From: a virus
Length of the DNA: 35,447 bases
Direction: 5' to 3' (one strand)
Virus record (IMG/VR): IMGVR_UViG_3300003324_000812
Location: 1-35,447 of that record
Numbering within the stretch: the stretch's first letter is position 1; each line of letters opens with the position of its first letter. A program made the position numbers and the translations under genes. Of this stretch, positions 337-32,613 are shown in pieces. The notes beneath the pieces were generated by a model. It saw only the letters and a list, made by a program, of their open reading frames with translations. It was not told the origin of the DNA and did not search any database.

Positions 337-441
337 TTAAAACAACCTAAAGTAAATTTCAAGCAATAAAATCAAAGCTAATCCAATAGCTAAAGTGGGA
401 ATAAAGAACACCAGAAATCTTTTAATCAATAATGCAAACAT
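337..441 (-). CDS. 34-aa single-span membrane peptide
   Basis: An ATG at 441 opens a 34-codon frame. The peptide starts MFALLIKRFL, is hydrophobic almost throughout (residues about 8-28), and ends in a short polar stretch. It follows the zinc protein gene at 456 by 14 bases in the same direction, as expected for the last gene of the leftward block. The upstream ribosome site is weak. It could be a small lysis or superinfection peptide, but nothing specific identifies it, and a chance frame is possible. Confidence 0.4.
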   Translation of the reverse strand: MFALLIKRFLVFFIPTLAIGLALILLLEIYFRLF

Positions 442-455
442 TATGACGATATCTT

Positions 456-845
456 CTAGCAACTCCATATAATTCCTTTACCTTCGCATGGTTTACAATC
501 AAACTCAAAATAACCACCATTAGGCATCACGCTTAGTTCTTTTCTTTTTCCATCACACACAGGACATTTATGCAGCTTTTTATTTTCTTGAACCACTTTA
601 TATTGCAAATGAGTAATTTCCTGGAATCTTTCTATTTCTTTTATTCTTTCTTCGAGCTTTTGAATCTGCTTGACCATAGGTGAGACAGCTTCTTCACCTG
701 GAAAATAAGGATCAGGATGATAAGAAATTGGATCAAAACAATTACAACATGGTTGAGGAGGAATAGATGTTTTAATGCTTTTAATTCCTGTCTTATGGCA
801 TAAGCATTCACAAAAAATAGAACTTACAGCTAGTTTTCCGCTCAT
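456..845 (-). CDS. Small zinc-binding protein with DnaJ-type CxxCxG motifs
   Basis: 129 aa. The C-terminal third has two CxxC knuckles (C94/C97 and C117/C120) in the contexts CPVCDGK and CKPCEGKG, resembling the DnaJ cysteine-rich zinc repeat seen in many small phage proteins. Residues about 56-90 are charged and heptad-like, probably a coiled coil. The N-terminus has another cysteine cluster (C12, C14, C16, C33, C34, C36), so a second metal site is possible. Its ATG overlaps the stop of the upstream gene (ATGA at 842-845), indicating translational coupling. Function is unknown; protein or nucleic-acid contact is likely. Confidence 0.75.
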   Translation of the reverse strand: MSGKLAVSSIFCECLCHKTGIKSIKTSIPPQPCCNCFDPISYHPDPYFPGEEAVSPMVKQIQKLEERIKEIERFQEITHLQYKVVQENKKLHKCPVCDGKRKELSVMPNGGYFEFDCKPCEGKGIIWSC

Positions 846-1048
846 ATATTGATTATCCTTTTCACCTTAGGATGACTAATTTTATGGAGCAGTTTCACAT
901 TTTCAATATGTCTCTTAGCTTCTTCTTCTGTACTATCAGAAAAATATCCGTTATCCCAAGAAAGCCAAGATAAAATTCCATCCACTCCTTTTGATTGAAT
1001 TTGAAATGTTCCATTATCCATCTCTAATATTCTAAATTTAGGACTCAT
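842..1048 (-). CDS. Hypothetical phage protein, 68 aa
   Basis: A small polar protein (MSPKFRILEMDNGTF...) with a tryptophan-rich centre (GILSWLSWDNGYF) and a helical C-terminus. I chose the ATG at 1048 because it overlaps the upstream stop as ATGA (1045-1048); the ATG at 1063 has no ribosome site. The W-x2-W core followed by an EEEAKRHIE helix is a pattern seen in short phage proteins of unknown role. No catalytic motif is visible. Confidence 0.7.
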   Translation of the reverse strand: MSPKFRILEMDNGTFQIQSKGVDGILSWLSWDNGYFSDSTEEEAKRHIENVKLLHKISHPKVKRIINI

Positions 1049-1248
1049 TCCATTACCTGCCATTTATTACTAAATAATTCTTCAACTGTCGGCGTAAATT
1101 CTTTGAGCTGCATGCTCATAAAATCACAATAAACCAATGCATGATCAGGCATTGTTGATTTAATTATGTAATTAACACCATCATCCCAGTCTTTATGGAT
1201 AATGCGTTTGTATGATAGTATTTCATTTTGAAGTTCGAATAGGGTCAT
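1045..1248 (-). CDS. Divergent Tad2/DUF2829-like protein (possible anti-Thoeris)
   Basis: 67 aa. It keeps the outline of DUF2829 (Tad2) proteins: an N-terminal helix, a basic stretch leading to a tryptophan (KRIIHKDW, W21), a short YI strand, a variable middle, and the closing block PTVEELFSNKWQVME (W63), comparable with the family ending S-x-E-D-x-x-A-x-D-W-E-V. W21 and W63 sit at the same positions as in the more typical homologue at 34895-35095. Tad2 proteins sequester the signalling nucleotide made by Thoeris. This one is distant, so the assignment is an inference; another small phage fold is possible. Confidence 0.5.
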   Translation of the reverse strand: MTLFELQNEILSYKRIIHKDWDDGVNYIIKSTMPDHALVYCDFMSMQLKEFTPTVEELFSNKWQVME

Positions 1249-1461
1249 TTAATCTACCAGCTGCTCTGATATTAACTCATACGCACAATCTAAATCTCTT
1301 TCATTATTAATAGGAATTTCAATATGGGAATTAAGAAGCACTATTTTTAATTTAAAATCTTCTGTTTTTATATCAGCATATTTGGAAACAAAAACAATAT
1401 GTTCTTTTTTAATCAAAAAATTTCCGAATTTGATAAATTTATTTTTAGTTTTAAATAGCAT
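1249..1461 (-). CDS. Hypothetical phage protein, 70 aa
   Basis: MLFKTKNKFIKFGN... The sequence alternates short beta-like stretches (FIKFGNFLI, IVFVSKYA, LKIVLLNSHIEIPI) and ends with a helix (CAYELISEQL). This strand-rich, helix-capped pattern recurs in small phage proteins that resemble PH or LytTR-like folds, but I do not recognise the family. A good ribosome site (GGAGAAATAA) precedes the ATG. It abuts the next gene downstream with no gap, so it belongs to the same leftward transcript. Confidence 0.7.
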   Translation of the reverse strand: MLFKTKNKFIKFGNFLIKKEHIVFVSKYADIKTEDFKLKIVLLNSHIEIPINNERDLDCAYELISEQLVD

Positions 1462-1480
1462 TTATTTCTCCAAAACATAA

Positions 1481-1609
1481 CTATGAAACATGCACAAAAC
1501 AATTTTTCACACCTTTTATCATTTCTATACATTTTAATATTTTGTAATATTCTTCCATGCAAATATTTTCTTCTAAAATAACTACTAAATTCATTTTTAT
1601 CTCAGTCAT
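1481..1609 (-). CDS. Hypothetical 42-aa protein
   Basis: An ATG at 1609 overlaps the stop of the YopX-type gene (ATGA, 1606-1609). The peptide MTEIKMNLVVILEENICMEEYYKILKC... reads as one beta strand (LVVIL) and one helix (EEYYKILKCIEMIKG), ending VKNCFVHVS, which resembles half of a ferredoxin-like fold. Stop-start coupling and codon use like its neighbours make it credible. Function unknown. Confidence 0.6.
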   Translation of the reverse strand: MTEIKMNLVVILEENICMEEYYKILKCIEMIKGVKNCFVHVS

Positions 1610-1947
1610 TTATTCTCCAACAGCTCAGGATTTTGATGGATATTGCCGATGATAACAGAACCTTCTATTGGAACTTCATAACCATAAATACTATTACAAC
1701 ATCCGCAAGATTCTTTAAATTCAGAATTCATTATGTCTATTACACGCAGTCCGTTGGCAGATTCAAATCTCAAAATATCCCCTTCGAATATCTTCTTTCC
1801 TTCAGCATCTAATAGGCCTGTGAATTGTTCTAATATACCATCGAATGTATTTTCAAAATGCGCAAAAAATCCTTCAAGTGACATTTCTTTAGAATAAGTA
1901 TATGTTTTATCTTTTCTGTCAAAATATCGAAATTCAATCGGTCTCAT
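1606..1947 (-). CDS. YopX family protein
   Basis: 113 aa, about 20-30 residues short of many family members. It shows the YopX hallmarks in order: an N-terminal RPIEFRYFDRKDKTY block, the central QFTGLLDAEGKKIFEGDILRFE segment (family pattern QYTGLKDKNGKEIYEGDIV) and the C-terminal VIIGNIHQNPELL. The fold is a beta-barrel of unknown biochemical role, widespread in phages and prophages. A CGCC motif (residues 81-84) is extra. It couples to the upstream gene by a 14-bp overlap and to the downstream 42-aa gene by ATGA. Confidence 0.9.
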   Translation of the reverse strand: MRPIEFRYFDRKDKTYTYSKEMSLEGFFAHFENTFDGILEQFTGLLDAEGKKIFEGDILRFESANGLRVIDIMNSEFKESCGCCNSIYGYEVPIEGSVIIGNIHQNPELLENK

Positions 1948-2125
1948 TATTTCCTCTATATTTTACAATAAATTCTTTTAATTCTAATGCATAACAAATC
2001 TTATCTTTATATTCATAAGCTGTTAATATTTCAGACGGAAGATGTGATCGTAAAAATTTTTGAAGAGTAGATTTTTTTCTAAATTCTTTCCTCTTTAATT
2101 CATAATAAGTTACCTCTATTTTCAT
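1934..2125 (-). CDS. Hypothetical phage protein, 63 aa
   Basis: Small, lysine-rich (MKIEVTYYELKRKEFRKK...) and probably alpha/beta. The opening IEVTYYELK, central RSHLPSEILTAYEY and closing FIVKY pattern is like small phage proteins of ferredoxin-like or RHH size, but no family is recognised. Its start overlaps the upstream zinc protein gene as ATGA, and its end overlaps the YopX-type gene by 14 bp, so all are translated from one message. Confidence 0.7.
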   Translation of the reverse strand: MKIEVTYYELKRKEFRKKSTLQKFLRSHLPSEILTAYEYKDKICYALELKEFIVKYRGNNETD

Positions 2126-2295
2126 TCTTCAGGCTCTCCGCAAAAGTAACCATAGGTGACCCAATCTCCTCTCTTAACGATCTGATCTATCCTTTTCTTA
2201 ACTTCTTCTGAAAGCTTTCGACCGCATTTATTTTCGCAATTTGGAGAAACACAGTATTTTTCAACTGATTGCTTTTGATAGCTAATCGACGTCAT
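2122..2295 (-). CDS. Small zinc-finger-like phage protein, 57 aa
   Basis: MTSISYQKQSVEKYC... Four cysteines (C15, C20, C24, C52) occur in the pattern YCVSPNCENKCGRKL...YGYFCGEPEE. I recall short phage proteins with a CGR-x-L centre and a terminal FC(G/D)E. One zinc site is likely. The 14-bp overlap with the gene upstream and the ATGA junction downstream place it in the leftward accessory operon. Role unknown; DNA or protein contact is the default inference. Confidence 0.7.
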   Translation of the reverse strand: MTSISYQKQSVEKYCVSPNCENKCGRKLSEEVKKRIDQIVKRGDWVTYGYFCGEPEE

Positions 2296-2458
2296 CTATT
2301 TTCCATTCGTGGCTTGGGTCTGGGATGAATACCATTGCATCTGTTTGCAATTCATTATTTAAAAACCCATAACAACTTATAACCCATCCACCAATTACTT
2401 TTGCTCTACATGTTTCGAATTGGCTTCCTTCGCAAATTATTTCCCATTCAAATTTCAT
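2282..2458 (-). CDS. Conserved small phage protein with GGW...FIPDPSHEW motif, 58 aa
   Basis: ATG at 2458 is preceded by the ribosome site AAGGAAAAATC. The sequence opens MKFEWEIICEG, then IGGWVISCYG and ends VFIPDPSHEWKIDDVD. The GGW-(I/V)-V strand followed by F-(I/V)-P-D-P-x-H-x-W is a recurring signature in 50-60 aa phage proteins of unknown function. It is all-beta in appearance with no catalytic residues evident. It lies just downstream of the XRE-sigma4 gene. Confidence 0.75.
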   Translation of the reverse strand: MKFEWEIICEGSQFETCRAKVIGGWVISCYGFLNNELQTDAMVFIPDPSHEWKIDDVD

Positions 2459-2489: not shown

Positions 2490-3110
2490 TTATTCTTCAT
2501 ATTCTCTTACATATTCCATCAATTTATTTGCTTTGTCTGGATGACGCATTTTACGCAAAGCTCTTGCTTCAATTTGCCTTACCCTCTCTCTAGAAATTCC
2601 ACCTTTATATCCGTCTAATTCTAATCTTTCACCTATTTCCTCTAAAGTATATTCTTTGTCATATTCACCTAATCCCATTCTCATTTGAATTATTTTTTTT
2701 TCTAAATTAGTTAAGCTTTCAAGAACAGTTTCTATTGAATTCTGCATCTGATCTATTGAATAATATTCTTCTAATAATTTTTGATTATCCGATTGATTCA
2801 TAATAAATATTGCTTCTGCTTCTTTAACTTTTAATGTTTTCTTATTTGTTTTAAGATTAGCTTCCATTTGACTAGCACTAAATATTTCTTCTGGAATACA
2901 ATTTAACTCATCACATAATTTTACTATTGACTTTTTTATCCTTCCCCTATCATCAAAAATTGATTCTTTCATATTCAAAAACTTACATAACCTTCCATAC
3001 GAAATACCTGTAGCTTTACAAAATATATGTGGGCTTGAATATCCTTGCTCTTCTATTTTGGTAAGAATTAAATTATTTCTTACTTTCATATCTATCCGAT
3101 ATTCTTCCAT
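2490..3110 (-). CDS. Chimeric XRE-type HTH / sigma-70 region 4 transcription factor
   Basis: 206 aa. Residues 8-78 look like a Cro/CI (XRE) helix-turn-helix domain (ATGISYGRLCKFLN, then KLCDELNCIPEEIF). A linker of about 50 residues follows. Residues 132-192 are sigma-70 region 4: LTNLEKKIIQMRMGL, then TLEEIGERL and the classical 4.2 helix SRERVRQIEARALRKMRHP. Sigma region 2, needed for -10 recognition and melting, is absent, so it cannot be a complete sigma factor. Region 4 normally binds the beta-flap of RNA polymerase and a -35 element; with an XRE domain the protein could redirect host polymerase. A GAGGAT ribosome site precedes ATG 3110. Its place between terminase and late accessory genes suggests middle/late gene control (inference). 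Confidence 0.85.
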   Translation of the reverse strand: MEEYRIDMKVRNNLILTKIEEQGYSSPHIFCKATGISYGRLCKFLNMKESIFDDRGRIKKSIVKLCDELNCIPEEIFSASQMEANLKTNKKTLKVKEAEAIFIMNQSDNQKLLEEYYSIDQMQNSIETVLESLTNLEKKIIQMRMGLGEYDKEYTLEEIGERLELDGYKGGISRERVRQIEARALRKMRHPDKANKLMEYVREYEE

Positions 3111-3144
3111 TAAAATATCCTCAGTACAGGATTAAACATAAAAA

Positions 3145-3357
3145 TTAATTTTTTGGAGGTTTAGGCAATCTCATAAAATGAGATATTTCGTTAAGTTCTT
3201 TTCCATCATTTGTATAATATTCATAATGTGGTAATTGATGATTTTCATTACCAAATGGATAATATTTTCCAAACCCAATAATTCCTGATTTCTCTGAATA
3301 TAATAAATATGATTCGTCTGTAGATACTTTTTGTTTATTTATTCTTTCCCATTTCAT
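3145..3357 (-). CDS. DUF551-like protein
   Basis: 70 aa from the ATG at 3357, which overlaps the terminase stop as TGATG and has an AAGGA ribosome site; a TTG three bases earlier is less likely. The N-terminal KWERINKQKVSTDESYLLY and C-terminal HFMRLPKPPKN fit the DUF551 plan, where a Trp-containing start leads to an ending like H-W-M-P-L-P-x-P-P. Function is unknown. DUF551 proteins are common small accessory proteins of tailed phages. Confidence 0.7.
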   Translation of the reverse strand: MKWERINKQKVSTDESYLLYSEKSGIIGFGKYYPFGNENHQLPHYEYYTNDGKELNEISHFMRLPKPPKN

Positions 3358-4913
3358 CAAAAAATCCTTAATACAGGGTTAAACATATCCACTTCTTTTT
3401 TAGGCGCTTTATCAGCCAATATTCTACTAGCAGCAAACTCTAACAAAATATACTGCAACGCATCTTGTAAATGCGAAGCCATGTTCTTATGCGGCACTTC
3501 TTTGTAACGCTCTTCACCACCAACACTAATACGCTTGTAAATGTAATCTTTAACAAAACCTTTAATCAGTTTAGGACATCCTTGGCGACATACAATCAAT
3601 TTAGGCTGTCCGTCTATCATGCCATTCAGAAAATACCGTACAGATCCTATTCTTGGCTCTAAATCATTAGTATTAGCCGGCGCTGTATCAATACCAAGTG
3701 AGTTAAGCTCACCAATACAACTTAATTCCTCCATGATGTCATCACCAGCAATACCACTAGGATCGGCTCTTGAAATCCCTATTTTGTTATAAGGAAAATC
3801 TCTTTGTAAGCTTGGGAGCACAATATCTTGCGCAAATGTTCTAATACCAATATCTTCCCCTTGATATTCTTTCAATATCCTTATCTGTCCTCTTGGAGAA
3901 ATCTGAATAACAACACAAGCTGGTGTTAAGCCAAAGTCCCAGCCTAAATGTATCGGATCTCCCTGTATTGCTGTTATTTTATCAACCGCATGTAAATCCG
4001 AATTAAACTCAGGATAAACACGCTTACCAAAACCGACCGATCCATATTCACCCAAACAATAGACTTTAACAAAGTCTTCCGTCTGTCCTTCAGCAAGCTT
4101 TGTATAGTAGTCACTCGCCAAATTAGCAGCATTATCGCAATTCGGGTTTTGATACCACTTATTGTCCTCATCTTTCAATAATCCGGGTGGTTGGTGAAAT
4201 ATTTTGTAGCTTTCCAAAGTTTTAAGCTCGAAGTCGCGATATATCCAATGGTCAATATCGGGAGGATTAGTGTCGCATATAATACCAGACCAATAATCAG
4301 TGGGACAAAAAGCACGAGACGGATAACGTTTATTAACACGACCTTTGAAATGAGCCAAAGTTCCTTGCGGTACTTCTGATAATTCATTAATGTAACATCC
4401 AGTAACTTCTAATGATTTGATTTTACGTAAGTCTTCTTCTCGGTCAAGCGCTATGAATATTAATTCTAATTCAACAATTCCATTACCATCATTAAAGATA
4501 TGTTCATAAGTTAGCAATGGCTTTTGACGCTTTCTAATCTCACCTAATTCTCCGAACCAGGCCAACCATGTTTGGAGTGTTGTTGATTGGAGTTCTCCAC
4601 TTGTGTTTCTGACGATTGCCCATCTTGATCTGCGTTTGCCGTTGTTCCAAACAGGCATATTAATTGATCGTCTAACAATCTCGTTAACGCACCACGTGCT
4701 TTTCCCACTTCCATAAGGACCAATAATGAGACGCACAAAAGAATTATCAGCGTGAGCAATATCCCCTGTAGCAGTCGGCAAATAGATTCTGTCTTTTTCG
4801 TTACCATGAATTATTGTTTCCTTACCATTAATAGTTATGTGTTTTTGATCTTGGTGTTTTAGAGAGTGCTTGATTGAATTTATTTCTTGACGCAATTGCG
4901 CAATCGATGTCAT
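3357..4913 (-). CDS. Terminase large subunit
   Basis: 518 aa, close to P22 gp2 (499 aa). This is the packaging motor ATPase with a C-terminal headful nuclease. Walker A is GPYGSGKST (65-73); the Walker B region with its catalytic acidic residue is CYINELSE (173-180). An RNase H-like nuclease is indicated by WDFG (D326), then SRADPSG (D384), and an acidic residue in LQDALQY near the C-terminus. The ATG overlaps the stop of the zinc-ribbon gene upstream (ATGA, 4910-4913). The small terminase lies two genes upstream, so the pair is co-transcribed leftward. It acts at the portal vertex of the procapsid. Confidence 0.93.
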   Translation of the reverse strand: MTSIAQLRQEINSIKHSLKHQDQKHITINGKETIIHGNEKDRIYLPTATGDIAHADNSFVRLIIGPYGSGKSTWCVNEIVRRSINMPVWNNGKRRSRWAIVRNTSGELQSTTLQTWLAWFGELGEIRKRQKPLLTYEHIFNDGNGIVELELIFIALDREEDLRKIKSLEVTGCYINELSEVPQGTLAHFKGRVNKRYPSRAFCPTDYWSGIICDTNPPDIDHWIYRDFELKTLESYKIFHQPPGLLKDEDNKWYQNPNCDNAANLASDYYTKLAEGQTEDFVKVYCLGEYGSVGFGKRVYPEFNSDLHAVDKITAIQGDPIHLGWDFGLTPACVVIQISPRGQIRILKEYQGEDIGIRTFAQDIVLPSLQRDFPYNKIGISRADPSGIAGDDIMEELSCIGELNSLGIDTAPANTNDLEPRIGSVRYFLNGMIDGQPKLIVCRQGCPKLIKGFVKDYIYKRISVGGEERYKEVPHKNMASHLQDALQYILLEFAASRILADKAPKKEVDMFNPVLRIF

Positions 4914-31748: not shown

Positions 31749-31986
31749 ATTGTCTCCACATCGGCAATCTCTGCCCCAAAGAAATAAGGCGTCTTTGTTT
31801 TTCGCCCCGTGACATTCCTTATCACGTATGAATTAATCATAATTGTTTTATGTGAAAAAAATAGGTACACCTGTAGACAAAAAATAATATATACTACCAA
31901 TTCAAAGCCTAGCTCGACGGAGCGAAAAGTTGATTCATCATCAACCTGGTTTTGACTAATATGATGAATACTTTGATAAGGTATGT
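31749..31986. other. Divergent gap between scaffold and endonuclease genes
   Basis: 238 bases without a gene. It holds a hairpin GTTGAT-TCATC-ATCAAC (31929-31945) and TTGACT (31952-31957) spaced 16 from TGATAA (31974-31979), a possible rightward promoter for the endonuclease, although it lies unusually close to that gene's ATG. Together with the endonuclease gene it may be the unit that was inserted. Confidence 0.4.
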
Positions 31987-32613
31987 ATGAGAATTTGTAG
32001 AGCGCCAGATTGCGAAAATCCTGCAATAAAGCAAAGAACCGTATGCACAAAACATAAGCATAGATTAAGAAAAAACGGAACTTTTGACATTCCTGAAAGA
32101 ATCCCAAAGGCTGATAAATTACCTGCCGATATTGTTAAAGTATGTAAAGTACATGGGTCATTAAAATATCACGAAGTAAATGTTCAATATTCTAAATATA
32201 AAGATAAAAAATATAAATGGTATCAATGTAAGGAATGTTTATCATTAAAAAAGAAAAGACTTTATGATTTAGATCCTGAAAAATATAATAAACTTTCAAA
32301 AAAGACTATAAATAAAAGAATTGAGAAAGCTAGAAAAAAGAATAGAGAATATCATATCACATGTTATATGACACTTGAAGAATATCATAAAATGATATTA
32401 GACCAAGATAACAAATGTAAAATATGTAAAAAGGAGGAAACTGCAAAGTATAAAAACAATAAAATAAAACGTCTCGCTATTGATCATCATCATGCATCCG
32501 GAAAACCTCGCGGATTATTATGCAGTAAATGCAATACTGCATTAGGATTATTAAAAGAATCCATTGAAATTCTTGAGTCAGCTATTTCCTATTTAAAATC
32601 TTCTATTCAGTAG
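31987..32613 (+). CDS. Endonuclease VII-type homing nuclease
   Basis: 208 aa. An N-terminal zinc finger (CRAPDCE, C20, H23) of the kind carried by phage homing nucleases, a middle zinc-like pair (C81/C84), a basic helical linker, then the recombination endonuclease VII core: CKIC (144-147), AIDHHHASGKPRGLLCSKCN (D166, H167-H169, C179/C182) and the LGLLKESIEIL helix. The His/Asp cluster is the beta-beta-alpha-metal site. It is the only rightward gene in the structural block and ends 11 bases inside the portal gene's 3' end, which suggests a free-standing mobile gene. Confidence 0.88.
   Translation: MRICRAPDCENPAIKQRTVCTKHKHRLRKNGTFDIPERIPKADKLPADIVKVCKVHGSLKYHEVNVQYSKYKDKKYKWYQCKECLSLKKKRLYDLDPEKYNKLSKKTINKRIEKARKKNREYHITCYMTLEEYHKMILDQDNKCKICKKEETAKYKNNKIKRLAIDHHHASGKPRGLLCSKCNTALGLLKESIEILESAISYLKSSIQ

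What the first reader, a model, noticed from the sequence alone, without database searches (positions are those of the whole stretch)
2490..3110. XRE-HTH fused to sigma-70 region 4, lacking region 2
A clear 4.2 helix (SRERVRQIEARALRKMRHP) is joined to an XRE-like N-terminus. Without region 2 it cannot be a full sigma; it could bridge RNA polymerase flap and phage promoters, a possible new class of late regulator. P22 uses an antiterminator (gp23) instead, and none is recognised here.
Basis: partly seen in the sequence, partly recalled or inferred. Interest (0 to 1): 0.75.

Follow-up and report, generated by a model that had tools for sequence, protein, structure and literature searches.

The report
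Phage regulator: XRE plus sigma region 4
A phage gene encodes a protein that joins a repressor-type DNA-binding domain to the RNA-polymerase-docking tail of a sigma factor; the same pairing recurs in dozens of uncultured phages and a few bacteria, so it is a real and apparently undescribed type of transcription regulator, though in this phage group it is an optional extra.

Summary
Window 2490-3110 (minus) encodes a 206-aa protein with complete sigma-70 region 4 (Pfam E 3.6e-13; predicted fold matches E. coli sigma70 residues 525-613, Z 13), an XRE-type N-terminus and no region 2. It is not chance: 46 distinct phage-contig proteins share the architecture. A search seeded only with the N-terminal domain returned sigma-4 C-termini in every complete hit, and four of 398 sampled Pseudomonadota genomes carry it behind a histidine kinase/response regulator pair. 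Close pairs evolve under purifying selection. No region 2 passed cut-off in the window or 37 family-bearing records, so a split sigma factor is unlikely. The 'late regulator' reading is weakened: 25 terL relatives of this phage lack the gene, and elsewhere it often sits in replication modules beside DNA polymerase, suggesting early or middle timing. Here it lies between terL and portal, directly behind a duplicated terL 3' end, so it was probably imported by recombination. Best mechanism (inferred): the XRE domain binds phage promoters; the sigma-4 domain docks on the beta-flap and/or -35 element in place of host sigma region 4, redirecting host polymerase. New variant of a known kind; function untested.

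The parts
2490..3110 (-). XRE-sigma4 fusion gene, 206 aa (P0001)
2826..3101 (-). N-terminal XRE-like domain, residues 4-95 (strand, helices 13-21, 27-34, 38-45, 60-69, 73-76, 79-83, strand)
   Evidence: AF2 model; HTH_26 in relatives over cut-off; conserved in family
2745..2825 (-). Short linker, residues 96-122, lowest-confidence part of the model; leaves no room for region 3 between the XRE domain and region 4 (inference)
2493..2744 (-). Complete sigma-70 region 4 (4.1, 4.2 and C-terminal helix), residues 123-206
   Evidence: Pfam; residues 107-205 align to sigma70 525-613, Z about 13, 36% identity
2541..2594 (-). Region 4.2 recognition helix SRERVRQIEARALRKMRH; keeps the residues equivalent to sigma70 R584, E585, R586, R588, Q589
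2598..2618 (-). Seven-residue insertion (LDGYKGG) in the turn of the 4.2 helix-turn-helix, the longest insertion at this place in alignment A2
3110..3139 (-). Relic of a terL 3' end (encodes MFNPVLRIF-stop, stop overlapping the ATG of the fusion gene); carries the AGGA-like ribosome-binding site
3145..3360 (-). Small ORF between terL and the fusion gene, bounded by the two copies of the terL end
3357..4913 (-). Large terminase subunit (context); its last codons are the other copy of the repeat
337..2458 (-). Block of small variable ORFs (incl. YopX-domain protein 1606-1947) between the fusion gene and the portal end of the genome

Best explanation
The protein is a phage-encoded transcription activator that works on host RNA polymerase. 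Its XRE domain binds an operator in phage promoters (inferred), and its sigma-4 domain docks on the beta-flap and reads or overlaps the -35 element in place of host sigma region 4 (inferred), while regions 2 and 3 of the host sigma factor still recognise and melt the -10. It would thus do in one polypeptide what T4 does with AsiA plus MotA: redirect host holoenzyme to a phage promoter class. Shown here: the two-domain architecture, its constant pairing across a family, purifying selection, retention of -35-reading residues and of the whole region-4 fold including the C-terminal helix, and absence of region 2. Inferred: flap binding, operator binding, activation rather than repression, and timing (early/middle in most relatives).
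For: Complete region 4 fold, residues 107-205 on sigma70 525-613, Z 13.1, 36% identity. Residues equivalent to R562, E585, R586, R588, Q589 kept in 33-43 of 46 family members (sequences fetched were selected on the Q[IL]EARALR motif, those were not). N-terminal-domain search: 78 ORFs with both domains, the single N-only ORF is cut by the contig end; four bacterial hits of an N-only profile also carry sigma-4. The family gene overlaps or neighbours DNA polymerase and other replication genes in about half of the loci; in bacteria it follows a response regulator by about 3 bases, i.e. a regulatory output position. dN/dS about 0.08-0.27 between close pairs. No region 2 partner over cut-off. XRE recognition-helix positions 38-43 are among the most variable of the N-domain while its scaffold is conserved, as expected if operators diverge.
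Against: No binding or transcription data exist. No operator or promoter class could be identified; promoter-like matches are not enriched. Close relatives of this phage live without the gene. Region 4 of sigma can also act simply as an HTH, and one relative (L140) has lost the -35-reading residues while keeping the rest.
Confidence: 0.5

Rival explanations
1. A two-HTH DNA-binding repressor/regulator: sigma-4 serves only as a second DNA reader (-35-like sites) and the protein does not touch RNA polymerase; it blocks promoters like a Cro/CI protein.
For: XRE proteins of phages are mostly repressors (general knowledge); the 4.2 helix alone explains DNA reading; Pfam also scores GerE/HTH families on the C-terminus of relatives.
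Against: The whole region 4 fold incl. 4.1 and the C-terminal helix, which are the flap-contacting parts (PMC2988021), is kept across the family; a plain second HTH would not need them.
Confidence: 0.22
2. A host-transcription inhibitor: the sigma-4 domain competes with host sigma region 4 for the flap and shuts off -35-dependent host promoters, XRE being a minor or autoregulatory part.
For: Small phage proteins acting on sigma region 4 and the flap are a known strategy (AsiA; PMC2988021); optional presence in this phage group fits a takeover accessory gene.
Against: The XRE domain is present in every complete homologue found by the N-terminal search; region-4-only phage proteins exist separately (C-only list), so a pure inhibitor would not need the fusion; bacterial copies sit in a signalling operon.
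Confidence: 0.13
3. Half of a two-piece sigma factor (as B. subtilis SigO with RsoA): a separate phage protein supplies a diverged region 2.
For: Region 2 is missing, and a region-4-bearing subunit with a separate region-2 partner is known in B. subtilis (general knowledge; literature listed).
Against: No Sigma70_r2 in the window at E<=10 and none over cut-off in 37 family-bearing records (one sub-threshold match, E 0.005). No conserved neighbour of the right kind was recognised.
Confidence: 0.07
4. A decaying fragment of a captured sigma factor (regions 3-4) without function, the N-terminus being region 3, not XRE.
For: A viral database entry of similar fold is named 'Sigma-70 region 3 domain protein'; some sigma alignments extend to residue 43-49; low G+C (28%) and optional presence.
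Against: No Sigma70_r3 match at E<=0.01 in 20 members, while HTH_26/HTH_3/HTH_31 match; purifying selection and wide conservation.
Confidence: 0.05

Closest known systems
T4 sigma appropriation (AsiA + MotA)
   Same: Phage factors that take over the region-4/-35 part of host holoenzyme and add their own DNA-binding specificity while host region 2 keeps the -10 (PMC2988021).
   Different: Two separate proteins that remodel the host's own region 4; here one protein carries its own region 4. No sequence relationship was found.
Minimal (single-HTH) phage sigma factors and T4 gp33-like factors
   Same: HTH domain that docks on the beta-flap without region 2 (described for group 2 jumbo phages, PMC7824862).
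   Different: Those are described without an XRE domain; region-4-only short proteins also turned up here as separate genes.
Bacillus subtilis SigO/RsoA two-piece sigma factor
   Same: Region 4 on a protein lacking region 2 (general knowledge).
   Different: No region-2 partner detected here; SigO has no XRE domain (general knowledge).
Lambda CI and other XRE/Cro-CI regulators
   Same: HTH_26-type DNA-binding domain; CI activates by contacting sigma region 4 next to its operator (works cited in PMC2988021).
   Different: Here the region 4 partner is fused to the XRE domain instead of being the host's.
MzaA (MZA anti-phage system sigma-like protein)
   Same: Best NCBIfam hit, E 4e-22, and PADLOC E 2e-16, through region 4.
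   Different: Match covers only the last ~140 of 726 positions, 79 bits against a family cut-off of 800; no other MZA genes were recognised nearby.

Membership tests
Sigma-70 family sigma factor | Region 4 (-35 and flap binding) | tested here: met
   Pfam E 3.6e-13; fold Z 13
Sigma-70 family sigma factor | Region 2 (-10 melting, core clamp binding) | tested here: not met
   No Sigma70_r2 in the protein, its 19 aligned homologues or the window
Sigma-70 family sigma factor | Region 3 | tested here: not met
   No Sigma70_r3 at E<=0.01 in 20 members; XRE-type families match instead
XRE (Cro/C1, HTH_26) regulator | N-terminal XRE helix-turn-helix | tested here: met
   Over cut-off in homologues L051/L069 and L164; sub-threshold in P0001 itself, E 0.0021; profile search of PDB sequences gave only weak hits
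XRE (Cro/C1, HTH_26) regulator | Sequence-specific operator binding | not testable with these tools
   Needs a binding assay
XRE-sigma4 fusion family (defined here) | Both domains in one ORF, conserved across genomes | tested here: met
   46 distinct viral proteins, 4 bacterial
Two-piece sigma factor (SigO/RsoA type) | Separate region-2 partner in the same genome | tested here: not met
   (a diverged or host partner is not excluded)
Late-gene regulator of this phage group (Q/gp23-like role) | Present throughout the group | tested here: not met
   Absent from 25 terL relatives, seven of them 31-37 kb records
T4-type sigma appropriation | Binding to beta-flap / altered use of host sigma region 4 | not testable with these tools
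   Needs biochemistry

The most novel reading that the evidence does not exclude
A widespread, undescribed class of one-protein sigma appropriators: a phage-supplied region 4 replaces the host's on the RNA polymerase flap and a fused XRE domain supplies promoter choice, so that host region 2 and a phage region 4 form a hybrid holoenzyme; bacteria use the same device as the output of a phosphorelay.
Probability: 0.38. Interest if true: 0.75.

Novelty: new variant of a known kind. Interest (0 to 1): 0.52.

Why it matters
PMC2988021 (2010) states that no sigma appropriation was known outside T4-type phages. A family that carries its own region 4 fused to a DNA-binding domain would be a simple, testable second solution, found in many uncultured phages, and a natural model for promoter recruitment by a single protein. 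It also explains proteins now filed merely as 'Sigma70_r4' or 'region 3' domain proteins.

Tried and rejected
Direct search for relatives with the whole protein found none in viral contigs and only region-4 matches in cultured phages and plasmids; the family appeared only after searching with region 4 alone. Single-sequence AF2 was useless (pLDDT 52). The idea that the gene occupies the classical Q position in lambdoid-type relatives did not hold on inspection: it lies in or beside replication modules. PHROG 36 and 351 matches are region-4 matches, not a fusion family. PDB sequence search with the N-domain profile gave only weak hits, best a designed repeat, one further protein that I take for XRE-like (3op9) at E 0.86. 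The N-domain was not modelled alone, so its fold was not tested by structure search on its own (the list is filled by region 4). Promoter scan gave no enrichment. First residue-conservation counts were spoiled by a slicing error in 14 rows and were redone. Paper searches found no description of the fusion, but that library lacks most subscription journals.

Full report
What was checked. The ORF is exactly at 2490-3110 on the minus strand (206 aa). Its C-terminal 80 residues are a complete sigma-70 region 4: Pfam Sigma70_r4 E 3.6e-13, RpoD-type NCBIfam models E down to 7e-22 through that region, solved region-4 chains E about 1e-12. The N-terminus gives a sub-threshold XRE match (HTH_26, E 0.0021).

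A family, not a one-off. Whole-protein searches found nothing full-length. Searching viral contigs with region 4 alone and reading the ORFs revealed proteins alignable over the full length (25-35% identity in the first set, 22-35% in the larger one). All 20 aligned members match Sigma70_r4; none matches region 2 or 3 at E<=0.01; several match XRE-type HTH families, two homologues over the HTH_26 cut-off. A search seeded only with the N-terminal domain is the cleanest test: across all loci, 78 ORFs (47 distinct; 46 after dropping one doubtful member, L103) carry both domains and the one N-only ORF ends with its contig. In 398 sampled Pseudomonadota genomes, an N-domain-only profile found four matches, all with a sigma-4 C-terminus. 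The two domains are therefore coupled by selection. Between close pairs dN/dS is about 0.08 (L059/L062) and about 0.2-0.27 (L140 pairs).

Structure. With the family alignment AF2 gives pLDDT 88.9: strand 4-9, helices 13-21, 27-34, 38-45, 60-69, 73-76, 79-83, strand 90-95, a low-confidence linker around 100-120, then the sigma-4 bundle. Residues 107-205 superpose on E. coli sigma70 525-613 (Z 13.1, 36% identity). Residues equivalent to sigma70 R562, E585, R586, R588 and Q589 (known -35 contacts; general knowledge) are kept in P0001 and in 33-43 of 46 members. H1, H2 and H5 of region 4 contact the beta-flap (PMC2988021), and all are present. The XRE scaffold (N12, G23, F30, G56, P73, L76, L86) is conserved while the recognition-helix positions 38-43 are among the most variable.

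Context in this phage. The window looks like a near-complete 35-kb podovirus-like genome: terminase, portal, major head protein, Sak4, SSB, primase, helicase, endolysin. The fusion gene lies between terL and portal among small AT-rich ORFs. Of 25 terL relatives (55-79% TerL identity), including seven records of 31-37 kb, none has it. Its G+C is 28% against 38% for terL and 35% for the genome. Immediately upstream (3110-3139) is a 30-nt copy of a terL 3' end encoding the same nine residues MFNPVLRIF-stop as this phage's TerL (3357-3386), with synonymous differences and with an AGGATATTTTAATG junction seen at the terL ends of relatives L004 and L005. I infer that the gene sat directly behind terL in a relative and came here by recombination at the terL end.

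Context elsewhere. In L053/L054/L055 the gene overlaps or abuts a DNA polymerase (phrog_17, E 1e-92), followed by exonuclease, helicase and primase genes; a homologue of that polymerase is near the gene in 10 of the 21 loci examined. This argues for early or middle expression, not for a late-gene switch in general. In four bacterial genomes it is the last gene of a conserved set: SMC/RecF-like ATPase, HEAT-HATPase kinase, response regulator, XRE-sigma4, i.e. a regulatory output.

Mechanism. Shown: architecture, coupling, conservation, absence of region 2 in the window and, over cut-off, in 37 family-bearing records. Inferred: XRE-directed promoter choice plus sigma-4 docking on host RNA polymerase, replacing or supplementing host region 4, with host region 2 doing the melting. 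Rivals are a two-HTH repressor, a flap-blocking shut-off factor, half of a split sigma, and a decayed sigma fragment; the last is largely excluded by conservation and selection.

Known or new. Region-4-only phage factors, gp33-like factors and AsiA/MotA appropriation are known. I found no report of an XRE-sigma4 fusion family, and no cultured phage record carries it at the sensitivity used; a database entry of similar fold is called 'Sigma-70 region 3 domain protein'. I file it as a new variant of a known kind.

Noticed in passing
window 3110-3139 and 3357-3386 (minus): Duplicated terL 3' end (MFNPVLRIF-stop twice, synonymous differences) bracketing the ORF 3145-3360; marks a recombination junction that probably brought in the fusion gene.
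   Followed up: yes
L163 5807-10325 (also L164 6590-11297, L165 1480-5986, L166 427-4979): Conserved bacterial gene set: SMC/RecF-like ATPase, HEAT-HATPase kinase, response regulator, XRE-sigma4 fusion, with a WYL regulator beside it in L164; the ATPase resembles defence ATPases (PADLOC Ppl E 2e-27). Possibly an undescribed defence or stress operon.
   Followed up: partly
L140 3404-3979: A close relative of the L059 member in which the -35-reading residues of region 4.2 are replaced (SKQGVGFIES) while most of the rest stays: promoter specificity may have switched.
   Followed up: no
L053 167-358, L059 6888-7070, L124 7658-7891: Tiny proteins (61-78 aa) upstream of the fusion gene that look like a bare region-4.2 helix-turn-helix.
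   Followed up: no
L036, L041, L083, L085-L089 and others: Separate phage proteins with region 4 only and short N-termini.
   Followed up: no
window 31902-32613 (+): Rfam int-alpA RNA (31902-31967, 45.7 bits) directly before an endonuclease VII-like gene (31987-32613) on the strand opposite to portal and scaffold genes; a related endonuclease sits at the same place in L028. Looks like a mobile insertion.
   Followed up: partly
window 1 / 35447: Gene order in relatives (terL, small ORFs, c6, portal) runs across the window's two ends, so the contig is probably a circularly permuted near-complete genome.
   Followed up: partly
window 2598-2618: Seven extra residues (LDGYKGG) in the turn of the 4.2 helix-turn-helix of this member; other members of alignment A2 have none, except two extra in L073.
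   Followed up: no
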